Shown one piece after another: positions 813 to 54,746 of a stretch of DNA of 64,000 nucleotides. Position 1 is the first letter of the stretch. Every line of letters starts with the position of its first letter. The stretch comes from a virus. The position numbers were made by a program, and so were the translations under genes. The notes beneath the pieces were generated by a model, which saw nothing but the letters and a program-made list of their open reading frames with translations, was not told where the DNA came from and ran no database searches. The stretch spans positions 17,524 through 81,523 of the IMG/VR virus record IMGVR_UViG_3300032236_001065, one strand, 5' to 3'.

Positions 813-2207
813 ATGGAACTACAAAAAACTTATTGGAATAACAGTGGCTCTTCTCTAGCCCTCTCATTCCCAATCGCCAAGGTTGATAGAGAAAAAAGAA
901 CCGTATCGGGATTTGCTTCCCTTGATAATGTTGACAAGCATGGAGACATTGTAACTGCTGAAGCAAGCAAAGCAGCTTTTGATAATTTCAGAGGAAACAT
1001 CCGTGAGATGCACGGACCTTCTGCAGTTGGCAAGATGCTTAACTTTAAGGAAGACTCTTTCTTTGATAAAGAGACTGGCAAGAAATATAGCGGAATTTAT
1101 GTAACAGCATATGTCTCCAAGGGTGCACAAGATGCATGGGAGAAGTGCTTAGATGGTACATATACAGGTTTCTCAATTGGTGGAAACATTGTAGATGCAA
1201 AAATGGAAAAGTCTGATGATGGATCAGAATCAAGGAGAGTTATTCACAAATATGAACTACACGAACTTAGTCTTGTGGATTCTCCAGCAAACCCACTTGC
1301 AAATATTTTTTCAATTCAAAAGATGGCAGAAGGCATTATAACAGAGAACGTATTCTGGTGCAGCACTGATGAAGTAGCATCAACCGCAACAGCAACAACA
1401 AAGAGTTGTGTTGTTTGCGATGGAGAGATGACAAACATTGGATGGGTTGAGCAAGCAGATGTTGAGAAGTTTGAAGCAATTGAAAAGGTAATTGATTCTT
1501 ATTTCAAGAAAGATGATGCTCCAACATCAGCACATGAAGCAACGGAGACAGCAGCTCCAGGTTTGGCGGGAAATGTAATTGATAGCACAACAGCTATTAA
1601 TCTCTATCCTGATCAAAACACAAAACAAAAAGTCACGTTTAACGACGGACTTAAGAAGAGTGAAGAAAATTCACTCAACGAAGGAGGTAACAAAATGGCA
1701 GAAGACACAGATGTAACAATTGAGAAGTCAATTGATGCAGAGACTCCAGCCGAAGAAGTTTCATCTGTAGATGAGACATCAGAAGTTACAGCAACAATTG
1801 AAAAGGCTGTAGAAATCTCTGAAGTTGAAGATACACTTGATTTTACAAAGATGGTCACTGACCTCAAGACCTTCTTTGGTGAGTCTATTGAAAAGAATTA
1901 TGCCCTACAATCAGCTACTATTGCAGATCTCCAGAAGGTTATTGATGTAACCACTGCTGAGCTTGCAAAGGTGAACAATTCATTTGAGGAAATGAAGAAG
2001 TCACACACAGAGCTTGTAGAAAAGCATGAAGCCCTACAAAAGTCAGTTACGGATATGTATGGAAAGATTGACTATGTTGATCACCAACTTAAGGGCTTTG
2101 AGTCCGCAACTGCAGTTAAGAAGTCCGTTGGGGTTTCCGAACAACCAATGGCTACAATCCAAAAAAGTATATGGCAAGGACACTTCCTCGGTGTTAATAA
2201 CCTATAA
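813..2207 (+). CDS. Prohead serine protease fused to capsid scaffold
   Basis: 464 residues. Residues about 15-165 match the HK97-type prohead protease (peptidase S78) pattern: GFASLDNVDKHGD near the N-terminus, the putative catalytic His in EMHG (about residue 67), GFSIGG, and the putative catalytic Ser in ELSLVDSPANP (about residue 153). The rest is acidic and coiled-coil-like (residues about 295-450), as expected of a scaffold, and ends in QKSIWQGHFLGV. The protease should process scaffold and capsid subunits inside the procapsid. An internal start at 1695 probably makes the scaffold separately. The major capsid gene follows 36 nt downstream. No ribosome site precedes the ATG. Confidence 0.9.
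   Translation: MELQKTYWNNSGSSLALSFPIAKVDREKRTVSGFASLDNVDKHGDIVTAEASKAAFDNFRGNIREMHGPSAVGKMLNFKEDSFFDKETGKKYSGIYVTAYVSKGAQDAWEKCLDGTYTGFSIGGNIVDAKMEKSDDGSESRRVIHKYELHELSLVDSPANPLANIFSIQKMAEGIITENVFWCSTDEVASTATATTKSCVVCDGEMTNIGWVEQADVEKFEAIEKVIDSYFKKDDAPTSAHEATETAAPGLAGNVIDSTTAINLYPDQNTKQKVTFNDGLKKSEENSLNEGGNKMAEDTDVTIEKSIDAETPAEEVSSVDETSEVTATIEKAVEISEVEDTLDFTKMVTDLKTFFGESIEKNYALQSATIADLQKVIDVTTAELAKVNNSFEEMKKSHTELVEKHEALQKSVTDMYGKIDYVDHQLKGFESATAVKKSVGVSEQPMATIQKSIWQGHFLGVNNL
1695..2207 (+). CDS. Internal in-frame scaffold protein
   Basis: An ATG at 1695, codon 295 of the protease gene and in the same frame, is preceded by AAGGAGGTAAC at ideal spacing. This is a stronger ribosome site than that of the full gene. 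The 170-residue product is acidic, rich in E, K and S, and predicted helical with coiled-coil heptads (residues about 55-150). It ends in the same W-x-G-x-F peptide found in two other proteins of this window. The arrangement mirrors lambda C/Nu3, where a protease and a scaffold share one C-terminus. Production of this form is inferred from the ribosome site, not shown. Confidence 0.7.
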   Translation: MAEDTDVTIEKSIDAETPAEEVSSVDETSEVTATIEKAVEISEVEDTLDFTKMVTDLKTFFGESIEKNYALQSATIADLQKVIDVTTAELAKVNNSFEEMKKSHTELVEKHEALQKSVTDMYGKIDYVDHQLKGFESATAVKKSVGVSEQPMATIQKSIWQGHFLGVNNL

Positions 2208-2243: not shown

Positions 2244-3404
2244 ATGAGTAATGAACTTCTACAAAAAGTAATTGATACTACGAACCTCGGTTCTTCAGCA
2301 GTCAATGCATCAGGCGACGCATCTAACCTTTCAGGTAATGGTCTCCTATATCCAGATCAGGCTAACCGCTTCCTGGATTACATGTGGGACGCTACGATTC
2401 TTGCTAAGGCAGCTCGTACAATCCGCATGCGTTCAAATACAACTGAAATTGATCGTGTTGCAGTTGGACAACGTATTATGACCGTTGCACAGGAAGAGAA
2501 TCCACGTAACTATGTTGCGTCTAACGATTCCTGGACTAACGCTAATTCTACTTCGTTCTCAAATGCAGCAGCACAATTCAACAAGGTATCCCTTACAACA
2601 CGTAAGCTACGTCTTGACTGGGAACTTTCAGCAGAATCTCTAGAAGATAACGTTGAGGGTCCAGATCTAGAAGATCACATTGCACGTTTGATGGCTACCC
2701 AGGCAGGTAACGATATTGAGGATGTTCTCATCAATGGTCTCGGAACTGGCTCAGGTTTGCTTTCAGCGTTCCAAGGTTTCCGTGCTCTCGCACTTAACAA
2801 CGCACACGTTGTTGATGCAAACGGTAACGGTCTAGACAAGACAATTTTCAACGCAGCAATCAAGGCATTGCCTCGTAAGTACAAGCAACGTCGTAACCAA
2901 CTTCGCTTCTTCACAGGATCTAACTTGGTACAAGACTACTTGTTCAACCTAACCGCAGAAACTAGCTCTGGCTTTACCCCATTTGATATCGCTTCAGGTA
3001 TCATTCGTGGTGATGTTGCAGCTAACGATGGTGGTCCAGGTACTGTAACTCCATTTGCTTTCGGTATCCCAGTTATCAACGTTCCGTTGATGGATGAGAC
3101 CCGTTCAGGCGACTACTCAGGTGCAGCTGGCCTTCATGGCGAGATTCACTTGACATTCCCTCAAAACTTCATTATTGGTATTAAGCGTGATGTAACAGTC
3201 TATCGCTTGTTCCAACCAAAGAAGGACACAATTGAGTACACACTCTTCATTCGTGTCGGTTGCGTAATGGAAAACTACGATGCACATGTTATCGTTAAGA
3301 ACGTCAAGGTTGCAGGTTCTGTTGGTGGAGCTCTCGGTTCCTTTACTAACGGTTCTGGTATTACTGGTGGCTCAAACGTCGCTGGCTTTACAACTTCATT
3401 CTAA
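2244..3404 (+). CDS. Major capsid protein (HK97 fold)
   Basis: 386 residues, directly after the protease-scaffold gene. It contains typical HK97-type capsid features: an N-arm (residues 1-35), a helix-rich P domain (about 100-200, with ESLEDNVEGPDLEDHIARL), and a C-terminal half ending in small Gly/Ser-rich segments. Codon choice (AAC, GGT, CGT, CTC) is more GC-rich than in neighbours, as expected for the most abundant virion protein. The ATG follows the special AAGGTGGTGA site. A hairpin terminator lies 26 nt after the stop. Position and size make the call firm; the exact cleavage site of the N-arm cannot be read from sequence alone. Confidence 0.9.
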   Translation: MSNELLQKVIDTTNLGSSAVNASGDASNLSGNGLLYPDQANRFLDYMWDATILAKAARTIRMRSNTTEIDRVAVGQRIMTVAQEENPRNYVASNDSWTNANSTSFSNAAAQFNKVSLTTRKLRLDWELSAESLEDNVEGPDLEDHIARLMATQAGNDIEDVLINGLGTGSGLLSAFQGFRALALNNAHVVDANGNGLDKTIFNAAIKALPRKYKQRRNQLRFFTGSNLVQDYLFNLTAETSSGFTPFDIASGIIRGDVAANDGGPGTVTPFAFGIPVINVPLMDETRSGDYSGAAGLHGEIHLTFPQNFIIGIKRDVTVYRLFQPKKDTIEYTLFIRVGCVMENYDAHVIVKNVKVAGSVGGALGSFTNGSGITGGSNVAGFTTSF

Positions 3405-18402: not shown

Positions 18403-19530
18403 ATGGCGGGTTCAGTACAGAAAAGAACTACAGGTAAACCAGTCACTGGTACAGTTGCCGCTGCCATAAAGAAAAAGCCTGAAATTTGGATTGGTCCTAA
18501 TGACCCAAGAAATGATCCAGACTATATAAGAAACTATCCTGGGACTATTCATCAGCTTACAGCAGCTCAGTTCGCCGTATGGCTCAAAACACAATATTCT
18601 GAGGCGGGAGTGGCAGGAGTTGTTTCTTCAGCAGACCTATATGCAGGAGATATACCAGACTCCAGTCAAGTTAATGGACAACTTGACAACACCCTTTTAC
18701 CTCCATCAAATATAAAGTGGGATGGAACTTTTACAACAGTAAATACAGATATTGGAATTTTGCAGGATATAGAGATTACATTTGATCCAGCTCCAGAAGA
18801 TCCATTTGATGGAAGTTTTGTATATCATGTTTATTATGAAGCAGAGGGTTCTGTTGCAACACCTCCAACAGCTGCCACAGCTCCAGCCGCAAGTGCATCG
18901 GTAATTCAAACAGTTGCCAATAAAGCTATTGTTACGTCAACAACAACTCCTGTAAACGGAGTAGTTACCGCTGCTACTGGAAATGGAACTACAATTACTT
19001 ATACATGTGCAAATAATTTCTCAGCTGGTCAATCAGTAACAGTCACAGGCCTTGGAGTAAAATCTGGAGTATCATTAAATATTTCAGGATTAACTATTTT
19101 GACTGCAACAAGTACATATTTTACAGTAAGCAGCAACAAGGTCGGTGTGTCTTCAGGAAAGGGGTCTGCAACATCTACAGTAAAGAAGATTACAACTCCA
19201 GTTAAAACATCCAGCACACTTCAATTTAAATTTCCTGCAAAGACAAACGCATCTTCATATACCATTACAGTTACTGGATCAAATTTGCCAAACAGCTCTG
19301 GACAAACACAGATGACATATACAGGCATACCAGCTACAGGTGGATCAAAGGCTTACACATCTGGAACAGTACATGGTAGCTACGCTTTGGTAAAATCAGG
19401 CAGCAATATAACATTTACATTAACTCAAACAAACGGCAGATCGTACAGTGGTTCATATTCTGCTAAAATACAAGTACACTATGCAAAATCATCTTCCGTG
19501 GAGGTAATCAGTGAATCAGTCACAATTTAA
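18403..19530 (+). CDS. Minor tail / fibre protein
   Basis: 375 residues. The N-terminus is basic (QKRTTGKPVTGTVAAAIKKK), then residues about 25-150 hold a conserved-looking segment (PDYIRNYPGTIHQLTAAQFAVWLKTQYSEAG; LPPSNIKWDGTFTTV). From about 170 it is Ser/Thr-rich beta sequence with two Ig-like repeats. It has its own promoter and lies in the fibre cluster, so a structural role at the tail tip is likely. Its start ATGGCGGGTTC is repeated at the gene at 20464. The C-terminus overlaps the next gene by 20 nt. Confidence 0.6.
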   Translation: MAGSVQKRTTGKPVTGTVAAAIKKKPEIWIGPNDPRNDPDYIRNYPGTIHQLTAAQFAVWLKTQYSEAGVAGVVSSADLYAGDIPDSSQVNGQLDNTLLPPSNIKWDGTFTTVNTDIGILQDIEITFDPAPEDPFDGSFVYHVYYEAEGSVATPPTAATAPAASASVIQTVANKAIVTSTTTPVNGVVTAATGNGTTITYTCANNFSAGQSVTVTGLGVKSGVSLNISGLTILTATSTYFTVSSNKVGVSSGKGSATSTVKKITTPVKTSSTLQFKFPAKTNASSYTITVTGSNLPNSSGQTQMTYTGIPATGGSKAYTSGTVHGSYALVKSGSNITFTLTQTNGRSYSGSYSAKIQVHYAKSSSVEVISESVTI

Positions 19531-48430: not shown

Positions 48431-49459
48431 ATGCCATATAAAATTGTACAACACGGAAATAAGTTTTCAGTAGTAGCTGAAAATACTGGTCATGTAGCTG
48501 GAACACATGAATCAAAGAAACAAGCACAAGCACAAATGGCTGCGTTATATGCAAATGAACCAGAAGCAACCAAAAAGTGCATGACTTGTGGATGTGATGA
48601 TTTAGGAAATGATCACCATTATATTTCAGATACAGAAAAATGTGCATCATGCATTAATAAAGGTCAAGGACCATGTTGGGATGGATATGCATATGCAGGA
48701 ACTAAAGAAGATGAGCATGGAAAGACTGTGCCTAATTGCATTCCCGTCAAAAAAGGTGATGGCGGATATCAACCAACTGCAGGTATGAAGTCTGCAGCAG
48801 CTAAAGCAATTAAATGGAAAGAAGAAGGCAAGGCAAACGGTGCAGGAACAAATGTTGGTTGGACTCGTGCACATCAAATTGTAAGCGGTGAATCGTTATC
48901 TCTTGATACAGTAAAGCGTATGTATTCGTTCTTTTCTCGTCACGAAGTTGATAAAAAGGGCAAGGAATGGGACAAGCCATCACATGGTAAAGTTATGTGG
49001 TACGCATGGGGCGGAGATGCAGGATACTCTTGGTCTCGTGCAATTGTTGAAAGAGAAAGCAATATGAAGAAAGAATCAGCGGGAGCAGAACGGCTCTCTG
49101 GTGGACCAGGATTTAAAATTGAATTTAATGTTCCAGATTGCCAAGGCGGTTACGCTGTTATGAAGGCGGGATCTGGACAAGTAATTGGTTGCTATACAAC
49201 TAAAGAGCATGCACAAGCAGCTATGGACGCTATAGCAGTAAATGAACCAGATTTAACTAAATCTGATCAAACTAAGCAAAATGAACAAGATGGTATTGGT
49301 TCATTGAATTTTTGGAATGGTTCTTTTGCACCAGTTCTTGGATTGCAGGGCGGGGACAATGGATGGAAATCCACATACAATTCTCCTCCACAAAATGATG
49401 GTAAGCCAAATGTAGGTTACGGTAATTCTTCTAGCCCTAAAGGTAGAAGTAATCAATAA
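48431..49459 (+). CDS. Capsid-associated protein with duplicated domain
   Basis: 342 residues from ATG 48431, six nt after GGTGGAG (a GTG at 48425 is less likely). Order: a short domain (YKIVQHGNKFSVVAENTGHVAG, then KKQAQAQMAALYANEP); a Cys-rich knuckle (CMTCGCDD, CASC); a conserved segment (GWTRAHQIVSGESLSLDTVKRMYSFFSRHE, WYAWGGDAGYSWSRAI); a second copy of the first domain (YAVMKAGSGQVIGCYTTKEHAQAAM, NEPDLTKS); and a C-terminal LNFWNGSFAPV. The central segment occurs in phage head proteins fused to proteases or portals. I infer a minor capsid or assembly role. Confidence 0.65.
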   Translation: MPYKIVQHGNKFSVVAENTGHVAGTHESKKQAQAQMAALYANEPEATKKCMTCGCDDLGNDHHYISDTEKCASCINKGQGPCWDGYAYAGTKEDEHGKTVPNCIPVKKGDGGYQPTAGMKSAAAKAIKWKEEGKANGAGTNVGWTRAHQIVSGESLSLDTVKRMYSFFSRHEVDKKGKEWDKPSHGKVMWYAWGGDAGYSWSRAIVERESNMKKESAGAERLSGGPGFKIEFNVPDCQGGYAVMKAGSGQVIGCYTTKEHAQAAMDAIAVNEPDLTKSDQTKQNEQDGIGSLNFWNGSFAPVLGLQGGDNGWKSTYNSPPQNDGKPNVGYGNSSSPKGRSNQ

Positions 49460-49466
49460 AATCTGA

Positions 49467-49500
49467 TATAATATATATACAGGATGCCGTAAGGGTCCTG
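49467..49500 (+). promoter_or_regulatory. Promoter and leader hairpin of sHSP
   Basis: TATAAT (49467-49472) with weak -35, then a hairpin CAGGA/TCCTG (49480-49500). AAAGGAG precedes the ATG. Confidence 0.5.
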
Positions 49501-49532
49501 AATTTAACTAACTTGCTGAAAAGGAGCTAAGT

Positions 49533-49970
49533 ATGACAAACCTAACATATAAAACAAATCCATTTGCACAAATTGAAACTATTTTTAATGACCCGTTTTT
49601 TCTAGGGTTTAATGATCAATTTGTAAGATGGGAAACAAATAAGAAGACAACATCTTCATTTCCCCCATATAATGTAAAGAAAGTTGACGAAGACAACTAT
49701 GTTGTTGAGTTGGCAGTTGCGGGATATGACCGTGAAGATATTGATGTAACAGTAGATAAAGACACATTGATTATCAAGAGTGAACGTGAAAATGATGATA
49801 AAGCTGATTACCTACACAAGGGTATTGCTGGACGTAATTTCACACAGACATTCACCCTTGGTGAGTATATGATTGTTAAGTCTGCTTCACTTGAAAATGG
49901 ATTGCTTTCCGTCAAAATTGAACGGGAAATTCCAGACGAGGCTAAGCCTAGACAAATCAAGATCAAGTAA
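49533..49970 (+). CDS. Small heat-shock protein (Hsp20/alpha-crystallin)
   Basis: 145 residues. N-terminal arm with FFLGFNDQFVRWE, then an alpha-crystallin domain (about 45-130): YNVKKVDEDNYVVELAVAGYDREDIDVTVDKDTL, YLHKGIAGRNFTQTFTL, ASLENGLLSVKIEREIPDE. The final residues RQIKIK match the C-terminal I-x-I anchor. It holds misfolded proteins in a soluble state, possibly aiding virion assembly or host survival. Similar genes occur in cyanophages. It has its own promoter and sits in a stress-gene group with Dps and GroES. Confidence 0.9.
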   Translation: MTNLTYKTNPFAQIETIFNDPFFLGFNDQFVRWETNKKTTSSFPPYNVKKVDEDNYVVELAVAGYDREDIDVTVDKDTLIIKSERENDDKADYLHKGIAGRNFTQTFTLGEYMIVKSASLENGLLSVKIEREIPDEAKPRQIKIK

Positions 49971-49978
49971 GGTATAAT
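49949..49978 (+). promoter_or_regulatory. Promoter TAGACA-N18-TATAAT
   Basis: TAGACA (49949-49954) is inside the sHSP gene end, 18 bp from TATAAT (49973-49978). It drives the small gene at 50026. Confidence 0.65.
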
Positions 49979-49985
49979 TAAAGGA

Positions 49986-50006
49986 CCCCGCTCATACTGG
50001 GCGGGG
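49986..50006 (+). terminator. Hairpin CCCCGC/GCGGGG
   Basis: A 6-bp GC stem with a 9-nt loop followed by TTT. It can terminate the sHSP message and also lies in the 5' leader made from the 49973 promoter. Confidence 0.6.
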
Positions 50007-50025
50007 TTTCTAACAAAGGATAAAT

Positions 50026-50157
50026 ATGGGAAGCAAGCATAACCAAGAAAAGATTAAGAAAGCTTTAGAAATTCGCATTAAAAATATGGAACCAGGCACA
50101 AAGAAGCCAGGCTCAATGAATAAGAAAAAGACAGGATACGCTAAAGTATCAAAGTAA
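50026..50157 (+). CDS. Small basic protein
   Basis: 43 residues, Lys-rich (KHNQEKIKKALEIRIKN; MNKKKTGYAKVSK). AAAGGATAA precedes the ATG, and promoter plus leader hairpin lie upstream, suggesting deliberate expression. Highly basic tiny proteins may bind nucleic acid, ribosomes or capsid DNA. No family is recognised. Confidence 0.5.
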   Translation: MGSKHNQEKIKKALEIRIKNMEPGTKKPGSMNKKKTGYAKVSK

Positions 50158-50159
50158 TG

Positions 50160-50165
50160 TATAAT
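50160..50165 (+). promoter_or_regulatory. -10 TATAAT, leaderless promoter for 50173
   Basis: TATAAT at 50160-50165 ends 7 nt before the ATG, with no ribosome site between. No clear -35. Confidence 0.45.
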
Positions 50166-50172
50166 TAGATAT

Positions 50173-50460
50173 ATGAACAAAATTATAAATCATATATCTT
50201 TTTATGTAGACAAATACCCAGCCAGAATGTCTGGATATATGTCAGCGATAATTCTTAATGTATCTCATATGTGGGTAAATTTTCCAATTGGTTTGTTTAT
50301 TCCAGTTGCCATGTTGCTTATTATGATGGGCGAGGGATCACAGAGAAAAGAAGACGAAAAGACTTTGAAAGCTTTGTATACAGACAATGATAAGGAAAAG
50401 CCAGATTCTGATATACTATTAGATATGGTGTCAGAGTTACACAAGAAAGAGAGCAAGTAA
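50173..50460 (+). CDS. Small membrane protein
   Basis: 95 residues. A hydrophobic segment (about 19-58; MSAIILNVSHMWVNFPIGLFIPVAMLLIMMGEG) can cross the membrane once or twice, and a charged cytosolic-type tail follows (RKEDEKTLKALYTDNDKEKPDSD). The Dps start codon overlaps its stop by one base (TAATG). Its role is unknown. Membrane localisation next to Dps may matter or be incidental. Confidence 0.55.
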   Translation: MNKIINHISFYVDKYPARMSGYMSAIILNVSHMWVNFPIGLFIPVAMLLIMMGEGSQRKEDEKTLKALYTDNDKEKPDSDILLDMVSELHKKESK

Positions 50461-50897
50461 TGGAAGAATTAAATCAATTATTGATCAAGCTACAATCTAT
50501 GGTGGTCAAGATGTATGGACAATCACACGGCTATCACTGGAATATTGAAGGTCGCACATTCAAGCAAGATCACGCATTTTTGCTAGAAATTTATGAGGAT
50601 GTATTTGACTCTATTGACACATATTCAGAAAACCTCCGCAGATTAGGATATAAAGCACCATTTGGAGTAAAGTCATGGGATGCTAACAGCGAATTAGAGA
50701 TTAATGATTCCCTAGACCTAGACTCAAAAACAATGTTTCAAGAATTATCTAAAACTAATTTAATTGTCTTGGCAATGATTCGCAGGACATTTGACAAAGC
50801 TGCAGAATTAGATGAGCAAGGACTTTGTAACTTCTTGGCAGAAAGAGAAGATAAACATAAGTTCTGGCAATGGCAGTTGACAGCAACCCTTAAATAA
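50460..50897 (+). CDS. Dps-like ferritin protein
   Basis: 145 residues. Ferroxidase residues occur at the exact Dps spacing: His-26 (YHWN), His-38, Asp-53 and Glu-57 (SIDTYSE), i.e. the 12-15-4 steps of E. coli H51, H63, D78 and E82. Overall length is that of a truncated Dps. Dps binds and oxidises iron and protects DNA from Fenton chemistry; a phage copy could protect replicating or packaged DNA. A hairpin terminator and tRNA-Arg follow. Part of the 49.5-55.3 kb stress cluster. Confidence 0.85.
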   Translation: MEELNQLLIKLQSMVVKMYGQSHGYHWNIEGRTFKQDHAFLLEIYEDVFDSIDTYSENLRRLGYKAPFGVKSWDANSELEINDSLDLDSKTMFQELSKTNLIVLAMIRRTFDKAAELDEQGLCNFLAEREDKHKFWQWQLTATLK

Positions 50898-50920
50898 TAT
50901 AGAATACAGATATTGATGTA

Positions 50921-50944
50921 CAAGGGTCACGAAAGTGACCTTTT
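50921..50944 (+). terminator. GAAA-loop hairpin terminator
   Basis: GGTCAC-GAAA-GTGACC (50925-50940), extended by A/T pairs, then TTTT. A similar hairpin occurs at 52482, with matching flanks. Confidence 0.65.
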
Positions 50945-50950
50945 GTATTT

Positions 50951-51023
50951 GCCCCTGTAGTTCAGTGGATAGAACAATGGACTTCTAAGCCATGTGTCGC
51001 AGGTTCAATTCCTGCTAGGGGCA
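50951..51023 (+). tRNA. tRNA-Arg (TCT)
   Basis: 73 nt: acceptor GCCCCTG/TAGGGGC (one G-T), D stem GTTC/GAAC, anticodon loop CTTCTAA (anticodon TCT), T stem GCAGG/CCTGC. The last base pair of the anticodon stem is an A-G mismatch. It reads AGA, a codon common in this AT-rich phage. Confidence 0.85.
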
Positions 51024-51032
51024 CAACTGATG

Positions 51033-51038
51033 TATAAT
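51033..51038 (+). promoter_or_regulatory. -10 TATAAT after tRNA-Arg
   Basis: TATAAT at 51033-51038, no clear -35, about 20 nt before the start at 51059. A possible promoter for the acidic protein. Confidence 0.4.
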
Positions 51039-51058
51039 AGTACCGAGGAAGTGGTAAA

Positions 51059-51385
51059 TTGGAATACGATCCTTCAAATGAAGAACACCAAGAGTTAATG
51101 GACTATCTGGTAGCAGAAGGTGCAGCAAGTCTTGATGGGATAGCAGATGATGGAGAACCAGTTTATAAGTTTGATATGGAAATCTTGGAAGAGGTTATGC
51201 CAGAACTCCATCAAGCAATGCTAGATGATATGGACCAAGTTTTACTTGATTTATATCAAAAAGGTTTGATTGAAGTCTCTTATGACGAAGATCTAAACGC
51301 TCAAATTGCAGTATCTGAAGAAGGTAGAAATGCTCTTATTCAAGCTGGATTTGATATGGATTCTTTTGACGAAGAAACTTACTAA
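51059..51385 (+). CDS. Acidic hypothetical protein
   Basis: 108 residues, TTG start behind GAGGAAGTGG. Strongly acidic and helical (EEHQELMDYLVAEGAASLDG; EILEEVMPELHQAMLDDMDQ; EEGRNALIQAGFDMDSFDEE). Acidic phage proteins can be DNA mimics or assembly factors, but I see no specific family. It lies directly before the AAGGTGGTGA-preceded gene at 51409. Confidence 0.5.
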   Translation: MEYDPSNEEHQELMDYLVAEGAASLDGIADDGEPVYKFDMEILEEVMPELHQAMLDDMDQVLLDLYQKGLIEVSYDEDLNAQIAVSEEGRNALIQAGFDMDSFDEETY

Positions 51386-51391
51386 TAAAAT

Positions 51392-51401
51392 AAGGTGGTG
51401 A
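51392..51401 (+). promoter_or_regulatory. Conserved Shine-Dalgarno element, copy 3
   Basis: AAGGTGGTGA, 7 nt before the start at 51409, preceded by TAATAAAAT. It is identical to the copies at 2225 (capsid) and 6611 (tail tube). Confidence 0.7.
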
Positions 51402-51408
51402 TTTAAAT

Positions 51409-51645
51409 ATGGATAACAACCAACAAGGTAAAGAAGGTGGCGTACAACAACCAGCTTCAGCAACTCCAGTAACGGAGGCAGCAGGCCCACAGGCAGGTCT
51501 TGCATCAGATGCAAAGACTGATCTAGGTGTAAACAACCCAGGTTCAATGAATGTCGGAAGCCCTTTCACGGGGCGTGATGTTTCAATGACCACTCCACAA
51601 TACGCTGGAGGAAATATCACGACAACAGAGGCGGGGTCAAGATAA
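51409..51645 (+). CDS. Small Gly/Thr/Ala-rich protein, probable virion component
   Basis: 78 residues of low complexity (GGVQQPASATPVTEAAGPQAGLASDAK; YAGGNITTTEAGSR). It uses the same special ribosome site as the capsid and major tail genes, which argues for high-level late expression. A flexible Pro/Thr/Gly-rich composition would suit a capsid decoration or internal protein. Directly followed without gap by the scaffold-like gene at 51646. Confidence 0.55.
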   Translation: MDNNQQGKEGGVQQPASATPVTEAAGPQAGLASDAKTDLGVNNPGSMNVGSPFTGRDVSMTTPQYAGGNITTTEAGSR

Positions 51646-52452
51646 ATGGATTTTGTACAAAAAAGAGAATTTTCAGATGAAAAGCGTAAGCAAATGGCAT
51701 CAGCAGGTCACGCTATGCCAGATGGTTCTTTTCCTATTGAGAATGTAACTGATTTGCACAATGCAATCCAATCAGTAGGTCGCTCAAGTAATTATGCTAA
51801 AGCTAAGGCTCACATTATTCAAAGAGCAAAAGACTTAGAAGCAACAAACATCCTTCCAGATGATTGGAAGGTTAAAAAGTTTATTGATGATGTTAAGGAT
51901 GCATTTGAAAAGGCAATCGGTACATCTTCTTCAGTAGACCAAGAGCGTGACGAAAGAAGCGTTGAAAACTACGTTAGACAAAGTGCTAACACAGACACAA
52001 AATCTCAGATAGGAGGTACAATAATGTCAAACACAACAGAGCCAGATCCACAGGGATCTATTGCAGTACAAAAGGATTTGCCTAACGCAGATCGTGCAGC
52101 ATCACCAGCAATTGTTGATCAAGAGACTCGCCCAGAAGGTGATGTTTCTCCATCAGCAGCAGCACACAATGTTCCAGATGTTTCAACAGGTGGAGCAGGT
52201 GTCTATAAGGCTGGAATGACTTGCCCAGATTGCGGTCAGGCAGTATCACACAAGTGTGCAGCTGATTCAGCTGCAGACGATGAGTCAAAGGTTGAGAAGT
52301 CAGCAACAGATGATGAGGTTACAGAAACAGTTGAAAAAGCTGCAGATGAGCCAGAGTCTAAGGAAGAAGCTGCTAAGGAAACAGCCGAAGACGAGAAGGC
52401 GGAAATGAAGAAGTCCCTTTGGGGCGGAGCATTTGCACCATTAAAGCCATAA
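51646..52452 (+). CDS. Scaffold-like capsid protein with internal start
   Basis: 268 residues, starting right after the previous stop. Residues about 10-85 (FSDEKRKQMASAGHAMPDGSFPI, ENVTDLHNAIQSVGR, then ILPDDWKVKKF) match a domain I have seen fused to phage head and scaffold proteins. The rest is acidic, Glu/Ala-rich, with a C-x2-C and HKC knuckle near residue 195 (TCPDCGQAV) and a C-terminal KKSLWGGAFAPLKP. An internal start at 52024 has a strong ribosome site. I infer a capsid assembly role. Confidence 0.6.
   Translation: MDFVQKREFSDEKRKQMASAGHAMPDGSFPIENVTDLHNAIQSVGRSSNYAKAKAHIIQRAKDLEATNILPDDWKVKKFIDDVKDAFEKAIGTSSSVDQERDERSVENYVRQSANTDTKSQIGGTIMSNTTEPDPQGSIAVQKDLPNADRAASPAIVDQETRPEGDVSPSAAAHNVPDVSTGGAGVYKAGMTCPDCGQAVSHKCAADSAADDESKVEKSATDDEVTETVEKAADEPESKEEAAKETAEDEKAEMKKSLWGGAFAPLKP
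52024..52452 (+). CDS. Internal in-frame form of the scaffold-like protein
   Basis: 142 residues. ATG 52024 is codon 127 of the 51646 gene, in the same frame, preceded by AGGAGGTACAAT. It omits the N-terminal helical domain and keeps the acidic tail, the Cys knuckle and the W-x-G-x-F C-terminus. This parallels the internal start in the protease-scaffold gene at 1695. Production is inferred from the ribosome site. Confidence 0.6.
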   Translation: MSNTTEPDPQGSIAVQKDLPNADRAASPAIVDQETRPEGDVSPSAAAHNVPDVSTGGAGVYKAGMTCPDCGQAVSHKCAADSAADDESKVEKSATDDEVTETVEKAADEPESKEEAAKETAEDEKAEMKKSLWGGAFAPLKP

Positions 52453-52459
52453 GTTAATT

Positions 52460-52475
52460 ATATATACGTATATAT
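52460..52475 (+). other. 16-bp AT-rich palindrome
   Basis: A perfect palindrome ATATATACGTATATAT centred on TACGTA, between the scaffold-like gene and the hairpin at 52482. It could be a regulator operator or part of a promoter; no binding protein is known. Confidence 0.4.
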
Positions 52476-52481
52476 GTGCAT

Positions 52482-52501
52482 AAGGACGGGAAACCGTCCT
52501 T
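52482..52501 (+). terminator. GAAA-loop hairpin
   Basis: AAGGACGG-GAAA-CCGTCCTT, 8 bp, followed by GTGTATTTA. It resembles the hairpin at 50921 in loop and flanks. Terminator, or leader of the next gene. Confidence 0.6.
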
Positions 52502-52521
52502 GTGTATTTAGAAAGGAAATG

Positions 52522-52890
52522 ATGAGAGTATTAGTTTTTGGAGACAAAAATTGGCGGGATTATAATGATGTTATCCGCCAACTTACAGTATTAATTGATG
52601 ACCGTAAACACTTCTATCCAGATGATAAAGAATATGTATTTGTACATAAAGGTCTTCAGGGTGCAGAAAATATGGTAACAGAATATATTGGAAAAACCGA
52701 GAGATTCCTTAGACAAAAAGGCTATAAGATCAAAGAAGAATTAGTTAGAGATCGGACATCATATTCTGATGTCACTATGATTGAATCTATGCCAGATTTT
52801 GCTCTCATATTCGGGGATTGTCCAAGAAATAGACAATGCATTAAGTTGCTTGAAGCATATCAAATCCCGTTCAGAAATATCAAAGAATAA
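52522..52890 (+). CDS. SLOG/YspA-like (DUF2493) protein
   Basis: 122 residues from ATG 52522, five nt after AAAGG (ATG 52519 is adjacent). VLVFGDKNWRDYNDVI, HKGLQGAENMVTEYI and MPDFALIFGDCPRN, with LLEAYQIPF near the end, match the Rossmann-like SLOG fold of YspA/DUF2493 proteins. These are thought to sense nucleotide-like ligands. It precedes the GroES promoter. The role in the phage is unknown. Confidence 0.65.
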   Translation: MRVLVFGDKNWRDYNDVIRQLTVLIDDRKHFYPDDKEYVFVHKGLQGAENMVTEYIGKTERFLRQKGYKIKEELVRDRTSYSDVTMIESMPDFALIFGDCPRNRQCIKLLEAYQIPFRNIKE

Positions 52891-52892
52891 GC

Positions 52893-52922
52893 TTGACACA
52901 AGCTCTATAAAACTGATACAAT
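52893..52922 (+). promoter_or_regulatory. Promoter TTGACA-N18-TACAAT for the GroES unit
   Basis: TTGACA (52893-52898) directly follows the previous stop. The spacer is 18 bp and TACAAT lies at 52917-52922. AAAGGAA precedes the GroES ATG. Confidence 0.75.
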
Positions 52923-52954
52923 AGTATTAATGTACCTACTAACAAAGGAAATGA

Positions 52955-53260
52955 ATGACAAATATTGACCCACTAGGTGGTCTAATTCTAGTCAAAGAAA
53001 TAGAACAACAAGATAAACGCACAAAATCTGGTCTGGTTATTGCTGCAACCGCACAAGAATCAGAACTTAAGCGTGGAGAAATTGTAAAGCTTGGCCCAGG
53101 TGAGCGGGATCAAGAAGGAAAGATACATACAATCCCACTTGAAATCGGACAAATTATAATTTATAATGAAGGAAATGCAACAGAAGTTACAGATGCATTA
53201 AGCGAAAAATATCAATTTATCAATTGGCGACACCTACTAGGAGTAGAAAATAATGGCTAA
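52955..53260 (+). CDS. GroES-like co-chaperonin
   Basis: 101 residues, the size of GroES. IDPLGGLILVKEIEQQDKRTKSGLVIA, GEIVKLGPGERDQEG and a later QIIIYNEGNATEV fit the chaperonin-10 fold: a mobile loop (about 16-32, KRTKSGLVI) and a beta-barrel core. It should cap the host GroEL (no phage GroEL is seen) for folding capsid proteins, as gp31 does in T4. It leads a cluster with WhiB, thioredoxin and an HslV-like protein. Confidence 0.8.
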   Translation: MTNIDPLGGLILVKEIEQQDKRTKSGLVIAATAQESELKRGEIVKLGPGERDQEGKIHTIPLEIGQIIIYNEGNATEVTDALSEKYQFINWRHLLGVENNG

Positions 53261-53483
53261 GTTAACATTAGATTACGATTCAGCACACAAGTTTGTTGAA
53301 AAGAATAAGGATCAAGGCTTCTTTTGGGATGGCTTTACAATTGTAAAGTGGTCCCCTAGCAACAATGGTTTTATGCAACCAAATGGTTTATATAGAAACG
53401 GCAAGTGGGGATATTCAAATCGTTATGATTTGAAGTCAAACGGCACTTGGGATATAAGCGAGAAGTATGCCAAGTTCGTTTAA
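53253..53483 (+). CDS. Hypothetical protein, aromatic-rich
   Basis: 76 residues. Rich in Trp, Tyr, Phe, Gly and Asn (FFWDGFTIVKWSPSNNGFMQPNG; NGKWGYSNRYDLKSNGTWD). The start overlaps GroES by 8 nt. Two WG-type turns suggest a compact beta domain. Not recognised; perhaps a nucleic-acid or ligand-binding mini-protein. Confidence 0.55.
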   Translation: MAKLTLDYDSAHKFVEKNKDQGFFWDGFTIVKWSPSNNGFMQPNGLYRNGKWGYSNRYDLKSNGTWDISEKYAKFV

Positions 53484-53805
53484 TTTCTTAGGCATAGACA
53501 AGGAAGACCTTCAATGGTATCACCTTGCTGTATGCAATGGTATGACAACTAGACCAGACTTTGATTGGTTCTATGACTTGTATGAAGCTGACAAAGAAGC
53601 TGCAAAACAAGTTGATGAAATGTGTTTGTCATGTCCAGTTATTAAGATTTGTTACGAACAGGGCGTTAAGAATAAAGAAAAAGGCGTGTGGGGCGGGGTT
53701 TACATGGATCTTGGCAGACAAGATAAACAACATAACTCACACAAAACTCCTGAAACATGGAAGAAGTTAAAGAAGATTCATGGCACAAATAAAATACACG
53801 GTTGA
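53467..53805 (+). CDS. WhiB-like iron-sulphur regulator
   Basis: 112 residues. Cysteines at 23, 53, 56 and 62 give C-x29-C-x2-C-x5-C exactly as in the Wbl family, with the G-V-W-G-G turn at 73-77. Wbl proteins bind a 4Fe-4S cluster and regulate transcription through sigma-factor contact, and are essentially confined to actinobacteria and their phages. This is the strongest evidence for the host. It may redirect host transcription; it overlaps the next gene by 26 nt. Confidence 0.92.
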   Translation: MPSSFNFLGIDKEDLQWYHLAVCNGMTTRPDFDWFYDLYEADKEAAKQVDEMCLSCPVIKICYEQGVKNKEKGVWGGVYMDLGRQDKQHNSHKTPETWKKLKKIHGTNKIHG

Positions 53806-54034
53806 AATGGCTAAAAAAATACGGGAAATAAAATGTCCCGTAAAAAATTTAGTAATGGATGTTAGGGCAAGACCTAATTATCTGGCTTTAACTGTGTATG
53901 AAGAAAATGTCATGGAGTATAACGAGTCTCAAAGAATGCAATTGATGGAATACCTATTATTGGTAAGACAATTAATTCAATCTTATGGGACACCATGTGA
54001 GCTGGAGGGAATCCAAGGCAATGTCAGATCATGA
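53780..54034 (+). CDS. Small conserved hypothetical protein
   Basis: 84 residues from ATG 53780 (ATG 53807 is an alternative after the WhiB stop). IKYTVEMAKKIREIKCPVKNLVMDVRARPNYLALTVYEENVMEYNESQRMQLMEYLLLVR. It seems a small alpha/beta protein. It sits in a tightly overlapped run of genes after WhiB. Function unknown. Confidence 0.5.
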   Translation: MAQIKYTVEMAKKIREIKCPVKNLVMDVRARPNYLALTVYEENVMEYNESQRMQLMEYLLLVRQLIQSYGTPCELEGIQGNVRS

Positions 54035-54230
54035 GGAAACAATAGAGTTTGTATATATCCCAGATGAGGGTATCTACGGAACTATTATCCAATACGGTGC
54101 TTGGTCATCATTAATTGAATATTATGATGGCGGAATTAAATACACCATTGAAATCCCCAACGATGAATATATTGTTGTAGATGAAATCGGTGTCGGATAT
54201 ATTGATGAAACGGAAGAAGATAACGAATGA
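54021..54230 (+). CDS. Small acidic beta protein
   Basis: 69 residues from ATG 54021 behind GGAGGGAATCC, 14 nt into the previous gene. Many strand-like segments (TIEFVYIPDEGIYGTIIQYGAWSSLIEYYDGGIKYTIEI) and an acidic tail. Overlaps its next neighbour by 4 nt. Unknown function; the run of coupled genes suggests co-regulation with WhiB. Confidence 0.55.
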   Translation: MSDHEETIEFVYIPDEGIYGTIIQYGAWSSLIEYYDGGIKYTIEIPNDEYIVVDEIGVGYIDETEEDNE

Positions 54231-54457
54231 ATTGTTACTCTTGTAATAAACAAAAGGCAGGCCTTGAGCCTACTAGATCATCTCTTATTCCAGGTATCAC
54301 ATTATTTTTGTGTGCTACTTGCATTGAAGAGAAAATGGAGCCACGTTGGGTTGTTATCTTGGCGGGGCGTCAAAACGGACCTGAATATGTAAGAGATTGT
54401 GTATTAAAGAGACGTTATTTTGGACATACAATTACAGCGGAGGAATTAATTGCTTAA
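54227..54457 (+). CDS. Small zinc-ribbon conserved protein
   Basis: 76 residues. CYSC at 3-6 and CATC at about 29-32, then a conserved segment (EPRWVVILAGRQNGPEYVRDCVLKRRYFG). I recognise this as a small protein common in AT-rich actinophages with no known function. The four cysteines likely bind zinc. It overlaps the thioredoxin gene by 8 nt. Confidence 0.65.
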   Translation: MNCYSCNKQKAGLEPTRSSLIPGITLFLCATCIEEKMEPRWVVILAGRQNGPEYVRDCVLKRRYFGHTITAEELIA

Positions 54458-54746
54458 GATTACAGATGATGTAAAAGAGTTTCAGGCTGAAGATGAATGT
54501 GTAGTTTATTTTACAGCAGCTTGGTGTAATCCATGTAAGCAATTAAAGCCACATTATGGAAAAGTCTCAGTAATAGACGCTGAAACTAACTATTATATGG
54601 TTGATGTTGACAAGATACCCTCAGATACGGTAGAATATTATGGTATCAAAAGCATTCCCCAAATTTTTCTTATGCAAAAGGGGAAGATTGTTGAACGAAT
54701 TGAATCCCGTACAGCCGAAGCTATCTTGGAGGAATTAGGTAAGTGA
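54450..54746 (+). CDS. Thioredoxin-like protein
   Basis: 98 residues, TTG start behind GCGGAGGAA. W-C-N-P-C at 25-29 is the redox-active site, and cis-Pro in KSIPQIF (near residue 70). Fold order is complete (YFTAAWCNPCKQL, DVDKIPSDTVEYYGIK, GKIVERIESRTAEAIL). It reduces disulphides, perhaps to feed ribonucleotide reductase or chaperones, or to serve the WhiB regulator. Overlaps the HslV-like gene by 4 nt. Confidence 0.85.
   Translation: MLKITDDVKEFQAEDECVVYFTAAWCNPCKQLKPHYGKVSVIDAETNYYMVDVDKIPSDTVEYYGIKSIPQIFLMQKGKIVERIESRTAEAILEELGK

What the first reader, a model, noticed from the sequence alone, without database searches (positions are those of the whole stretch)
48431..52452. Shared C-terminal W-x-G-x-F peptide in three proteins
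The protease-scaffold ends KSIWQGHFLGV, the protein at 51646 ends KSLWGGAFAPL, and the protein at 48431 has LNFWNGSFAPV near its end. The three proteins are otherwise unrelated. I infer a shared docking or cargo peptide that takes them into the procapsid and may be removed by the protease. If so, it is a modular capsid-targeting signal.
Basis: partly seen in the sequence, partly recalled or inferred. Interest (0 to 1): 0.75.

Follow-up and report, generated by a model that had tools for sequence, protein, structure and literature searches.

The report
Shared tail tag on phage head proteins
A group of lake phages carries the same short tail peptide (Trp-x-Gly-x-Phe) on the enzyme-scaffold that builds the phage head and on several unrelated proteins, which probably lets those proteins ride into the growing phage head, like a shipping label.

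Summary
In this 81.5 kb freshwater actinobacteriophage record, the S78 protease-scaffold (813-2207), p48 (48431-49459) and p51 (51646-52452) carry W-x-G-x-F at or near the C-terminus: 3 of 111 gene tails against 0.25 expected (P=0.001). By homology with the tail removed, the motif is kept in 60/61 proteases, 38/38 p51 homologues and 62/63 p48 C-module homologues, and in 0 of 178 homologues of Dps, Hsp20, MCP and the p51 upstream neighbour. Relatives added two more tagged families: a small Cys-rich protein and an HAD (PNKP-phosphatase-like) protein whose bodies are down to 42% identical while all seven end in T[VI]WSGIFI. p48 modules are shuffled and split among ORFs, and nearly every piece keeps a tag. 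The tag persists in proteases of Stanwilliamsviridae (about 40% identity).
Best explanation: it is the scaffold's own capsid-docking tail, reused to carry cargo into the procapsid in trans. In other viruses the same cargo domains are fused in cis to head maturation proteases (DSL-LC01, DalanDe, Cece, HGTV-1, HSTV-1). The docking partner, virion presence and proteolytic removal are untested; AlphaFold docking failed. It works like T4/P1 capsid-targeting sequences but is C-terminal and shared with the scaffold.

The parts
813..2207 (+). Head maturation protease-scaffold (S78 protease, coiled coil, C-terminal tag)
   Evidence: PHROG 9427 E 8.5e-111 over the whole protein; Pfam S78/S78_2
2163..2195 (+). 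Tag KSIWQGHFLGV
   Evidence: W.G.F in last 20 aa of 60/61 homologues found without the tail; WGGHFL/WGGRFL in Yaboi, Blueeyedbeauty, Angela, Francob, WGGIF in Francesca
2244..3404 (+). Major capsid protein, proposed docking partner
   Evidence: Pfam Phage_capsid, PHROG 1623; partner role inferred
48431..49459 (+). p48: multi-module tagged protein
   Evidence: Module order and content vary between relatives
48575..48772 (+). p48 Cys-rich / CWDGY module
   Evidence: 49% identical stretch in HSTV-1 gp13 head maturation protease, E 1e-6
48767..49075 (+). p48 B module (PHROG 2859)
   Evidence: Inside HGTV-1 prohead protease and in DSL-LC01 gene annotated capsid maturation protease
49076..49285 (+). 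p48 C module (DUF2188-like)
   Evidence: Pfam DUF2188 E 1e-4; 62/63 homologues tagged
49304..49336 (+). Tag LNFWNGSFAPV
49361..49456 (+). Conserved end module STYNSPPQ.DGK..VGYGN
   Evidence: Alignment A2; function unknown
51646..52452 (+). p51: N-terminal domain plus acidic linker plus tag
   Evidence: N-domain is the C-terminal end of DalanDe S78 protease gp27 and part of Cece gp70 and DSL-LC01 WJZ48514
52411..52443 (+). Tag KSLWGGAFAPL
   Evidence: 38/38 homologues keep W.G.F in last 20 aa
49533..49970 (+). Hsp20, untagged neighbour (negative control)
   Evidence: 0/35 homologues tagged
50460..50897 (+). Dps/ferritin-like, untagged neighbour (negative control)
   Evidence: 0/54 homologues tagged

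Best explanation
W-x-G-x-F is the C-terminal docking peptide of the protease-scaffold. During procapsid assembly it most likely binds the inner face of the major capsid protein. Other proteins (p48, p51 and, in relatives, a small Cys-rich protein and an HAD phosphatase-like protein) have acquired the same peptide, so they are loaded into the procapsid in trans as cargo. In other phages the same domains enter in cis, as parts of the protease-scaffold polypeptide. Shown: the shared, conserved, movable peptide and the cis fusions. Inferred: the capsid as binding partner, cargo loading, and delivery to the host. Not shown: cleavage by the protease.
For: Conservation by homology with tails removed: protease 60/61, p51 38/38, p48 C module 62/63; controls Dps 0/54, Hsp20 0/35, MCP 0/47, p51 upstream neighbour 0/42. 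Some p51/p48 rows come from motif-selected loci, but before those were fetched it was already every listed p51 homologue and all listed proteases but one, L082. More distant contigs G021-G026, whose proteases are 45-61% identical over the aligned part, keep the tag on both protease and cargo. Two new tagged families: Cys-rich p108 (2/2) and HAD (7/7 closed homologues end T[VI]WSGIFI with bodies down to 42% identical). Modules are permuted, and split ORFs L110/L111 each keep a tag. Cis fusions: p51 N-domain and p108 both in DSL-LC01 WJZ48514 (S78), 43% and 45% identity; p51 N-domain at the end of DalanDe protease; B module in HGTV-1 protease; Cys-rich module in HSTV-1 protease. The tag region is predicted disordered in p48 (pLDDT about 33), as expected of a linear peptide.
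Against: No proteomics or structure. The read-through tail+MCP fusion model failed (mean pLDDT 34), so docking was not tested. In p48 the tag lies 48 residues before the end, so it need not be terminal. Streptomyces relatives seem to tag only the protease (first 100 kb of two genomes). Rhodococcus phage Weasels2 protease lacks the motif. Cis fusion shows shared association with head assembly, not this peptide's partner.
Confidence: 0.75

Rival explanations
1. The peptide is a docking or recognition site for the S78 protease (or for the scaffold coil), not for the shell: it brings substrates to the protease, or cargo to the scaffold, and only indirectly into the head.
For: Every one of the tagged domains p51-N, p48-B, p48 Cys-rich and p108 is linked to a protease polypeptide in some virus; T4 internal-protein peptides are both targeting and processing signals (PMC9026906).
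Against: The protease itself carries the peptide at its own C-terminus; no common cleavage-like sequence next to the tag across families.
Confidence: 0.13
2. The peptide binds a host factor (chaperone, clamp, membrane site), and sharing with the scaffold reflects common use of that factor.
For: The p48/p51 genes lie beside Hsp20 and GroES genes.
Against: Untagged chaperone and Dps neighbours; tagged domains are fused to head proteases in other phages; no matching host motif known to me.
Confidence: 0.07
3. Chance or hitchhiking: short similar ends produced by drift or recombination without function.
For: Single W.G.F matches occur by chance outside the group (singletons).
Against: P=0.001 in this genome; near-invariance over many relatives while flanks vary.
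Confidence: 0.02

Closest known systems
T4 capsid targeting sequence (CTS) of internal proteins IPI-IPIII
   Same: Short peptide shared by otherwise different proteins, sends cargo into the prohead, thought to let phages swap cargo (PMC9026906)
   Different: T4 CTS is N-terminal and cleaved by gp21; here C-terminal W-x-G-x-F, shared with the protease-scaffold itself, cleavage unknown
P1 DarB capsid targeting sequence
   Same: Sequence of 10-30 residues sufficient to package a reporter (PMC9024508)
   Different: N-terminal; no consensus shared among Dar proteins was found
Encapsulin targeting (cargo-loading) peptides
   Same: Conserved peptides that load cargo into an HK97-fold shell (PMC8346489, PMC10960027); C-terminal in one of the two loading modes (PMC13185644)
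   Different: Encapsulins are host compartments without scaffold protease; motif differs
C-terminal capsid-binding tails of scaffolds (P22 scaffold C-terminus; herpesvirus protease/scaffold), from own knowledge
   Same: Scaffold C-terminus binds capsid protein; in herpesviruses it sits on a protease-scaffold
   Different: Not known to me to be shared by a set of separate phage cargo proteins with domain shuffling

Membership tests
S78 head maturation protease-scaffold (813-2207) | Sequence match to prohead protease families, gene next to MCP | tested here: met
   MCP at 2244
Capsid targeting sequence (T4/P1 type) | Same short peptide on otherwise unrelated proteins | tested here: met
Capsid targeting sequence (T4/P1 type) | N-terminal position | tested here: not met
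   C-terminal, or 48-56 residues from the C-terminus in p48
Capsid targeting sequence (T4/P1 type) | Sufficient to package a reporter | not testable with these tools
   Needs a bench test; see next steps
Capsid targeting sequence (T4/P1 type) | Removed by prohead protease | not testable with these tools
   No common cleavage-like sequence seen next to the tag
Encapsulin targeting peptide | Binds HK97-fold shell protein | tested here: inconclusive
   AlphaFold tail+MCP fusion failed, pLDDT 34
Encapsulin system | Shell operon without phage packaging/tail genes | tested here: not met
   Window holds a full phage morphogenesis region
Scaffold C-terminal capsid-binding tail | Peptide conserved at the end of the scaffold across divergent relatives | tested here: met
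   exception Weasels2

The most novel reading that the evidence does not exclude
A general, swappable phage head-loading tag: in one large phage group, any protein that gains K-x-[ILV]-W-x-G-x-F at its end is packaged via the scaffold's docking site. Virion cargo, including enzymes such as a PNKP-like HAD phosphatase, can then be predicted from the tail alone, and cargo domains move between cis (fused to the protease) and trans (tagged).
Probability: 0.55. Interest if true: 0.8.

Novelty: new variant of a known kind. Interest (0 to 1): 0.7.

Why it matters
It would give a sequence-readable rule for which proteins a phage packs into its head, in phages of abundant freshwater Actinobacteria whose virion proteins are largely unknown. 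It links scaffold and cargo through one peptide, offers a C-terminal counterpart of the T4 CTS, and suggests a route by which domains leave a scaffold fusion and become independent tagged cargo.

Tried and rejected
AlphaFold of a natural read-through fusion (protease tail, linker, MCP) to test docking: failed for lack of alignment depth. A first mixed alignment for that job was discarded because the tails misaligned. PDB fold search with the p48 model: no match at E<0.001. Motif scans of viral contigs found only scattered, chance-like matches outside the group. W.G.F-like matches set aside: WhiB GVWGGVY (53467-53805), PWCGSF mid-protein in relatives, tail protein 18403-19530 interior, antisense or overlapping ORFs. 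p108 against the gene annotated as an iron-sulfur protein in DSL-LC01: no similarity; the true homologue is in the next protease gene. Paper searches found no report of this motif, within an open-licence library only.

Full report
Setting. The window is positions 17524-81523 of an 81,523-base IMG/VR virus record. A WhiB gene and protease relatives in actinobacteriophages point to an actinobacterial host. A complete head-tail region follows the protease-scaffold (813-2207) and MCP (2244-3404).

Observation. The three peptides are present as described, give or take 2-3 residues at the ends. W.G.F in the last 60 residues occurs in 3 of 111 gene-like ORFs against 0.25 expected, P=0.001. In 20 related contigs taken separately, gene tails (last 25 residues) carry the motif in 1-4 genes each against about 0.02-0.17 expected; in gene interiors it is rare. 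With the motif masked, protease, p48 and p51 are unrelated.

Conservation. Homologues were sought with the tails removed. The motif is in the last 20 residues of 60/61 proteases (the exception, L082, is a shortened ORF) and 38/38 p51 proteins, and anywhere in 62/63 proteins with the p48 C module. Neighbouring Dps (54), Hsp20 (35), the small p51 neighbour (42) and MCP (47) homologues never carry it. Part of the p51/p48 set came from motif-selected contigs, so the earlier unselected set matters: every listed p51 tail and all but one listed protease tail had it. Around the motif, the consensus is K-[ST]-[ILV]-W-x-G-x-F-[ASL], with P following in cargo and flanks varying.

Deep conservation. Stanwilliamsviridae proteases at about 40% identity end KWGGHFLSVSDI or KWGGRFLGLSDL; Rhodococcus phage Francesca has WGGIF; Weasels2 has lost it. 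Contigs G021-G026 and G039, with proteases 45-61% identical over the aligned part, keep the tag on the protease, and all but G039 (only 16 kb) also on cargo.

Modularity. The p48 family is a mosaic of an N-terminal module, a Cys-rich CWDGY module, the B module, the C module and an end module in changing order; many members hold two tags. In L110 and L111 the protein is split into two ORFs, each with its own tag. Variants exist (WGASF in L269, WEGSAF in L325). In G021 a B module is joined to a p51-like acidic tail with tag.

New tagged families. p108, a 107-108 aa Cys-rich protein (weak HIPIP match), ends SWGGSFAPIKKI or FWGGHFAV. An HAD protein resembling polynucleotide kinase phosphatase (PHROG 415 E 5e-11) ends T[VI]WSGIFI in all seven closed homologues, although bodies are down to 42% identical. 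These HAD proteins were not selected by their own tag.

Cis versus trans. The p51 N-domain lies at the C-terminal end of the S78 protease gp27 of Gordonia phage DalanDe, just upstream of MCP, in Microbacterium phage Cece gp70, and as a small gene between MuF-like and scaffold genes in KimJongPhill. DSL-LC01 WJZ48514 combines an S78 region with both the p51 N-domain (43% identity) and the p108 domain (45%), and the preceding gene carries the B module. HGTV-1 prohead protease contains the B module, and HSTV-1 head maturation protease the Cys-rich module. No W.G.F occurs in DSL-LC01 WJZ48514 or the next gene. The tagged domains thus belong with the protease-scaffold in other viruses, which is the main reason to place the tagged proteins in the procapsid.

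Mechanism. Because the peptide ends the scaffold and scaffold C-termini bind capsid protein in well-studied systems (own knowledge), the most likely partner is MCP's inner face; cargo uses the same site. This step is inferred. A fusion that the DNA itself gives when the stops between protease and MCP are read through was folded to test it, but the model failed. In p48 alone the tag region is predicted disordered. Removal by the protease has no evidence either way.

Known systems. T4 internal proteins (PMC9026906) and P1 DarB (PMC9024508) have N-terminal capsid targeting sequences; encapsulins load cargo by targeting peptides (PMC8346489, PMC10960027). The present tag works like these but differs in position, motif and in being shared with the protease-scaffold, so it is filed as a new variant of a known kind.

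Noticed in passing
L358:9100-9525 and L317, L333, L307, L314, L312, L324: HAD/PNKP-phosphatase-like protein with near-invariant T[VI]WSGIFI end, overlapping or next to the Dps gene in several contigs; its motif I reads DIHNT instead of DxDxT in L358.
   Followed up: partly
window 49361-49456: p48 ends in a second highly conserved module, STYNSPPQ.DGKP.VGYGN.S...GRSNQ, of unknown function.
   Followed up: no
window 51409-51645: Small protein just upstream of p51 with conserved SMTTPQYAGGNITTTEAGS; 42 homologues found, no family match.
   Followed up: partly
window 49533-54746: Cluster of Hsp20, Dps-like ferritin, GroES (52955-53260), WhiB (53467-53805) and thioredoxin (54450-54746) around the tagged genes.
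   Followed up: partly
L341:2995-4302: Rhodococcus phage Weasels2 protease-scaffold lacks the W-x-G-x-F tail that Francesca keeps; a natural case to look for a changed MCP docking site.
   Followed up: no
L168:7122-7670 and counterparts in L180, L184, L196: 177-183 aa protein encoded between p48 and p51 with conserved WCGSF mid-protein; probably unrelated to the tag.
   Followed up: no
window 48431-49285: The N-terminal and C modules of p48 are themselves similar (39% identity, E 4e-6), suggesting an internal duplication.
   Followed up: no
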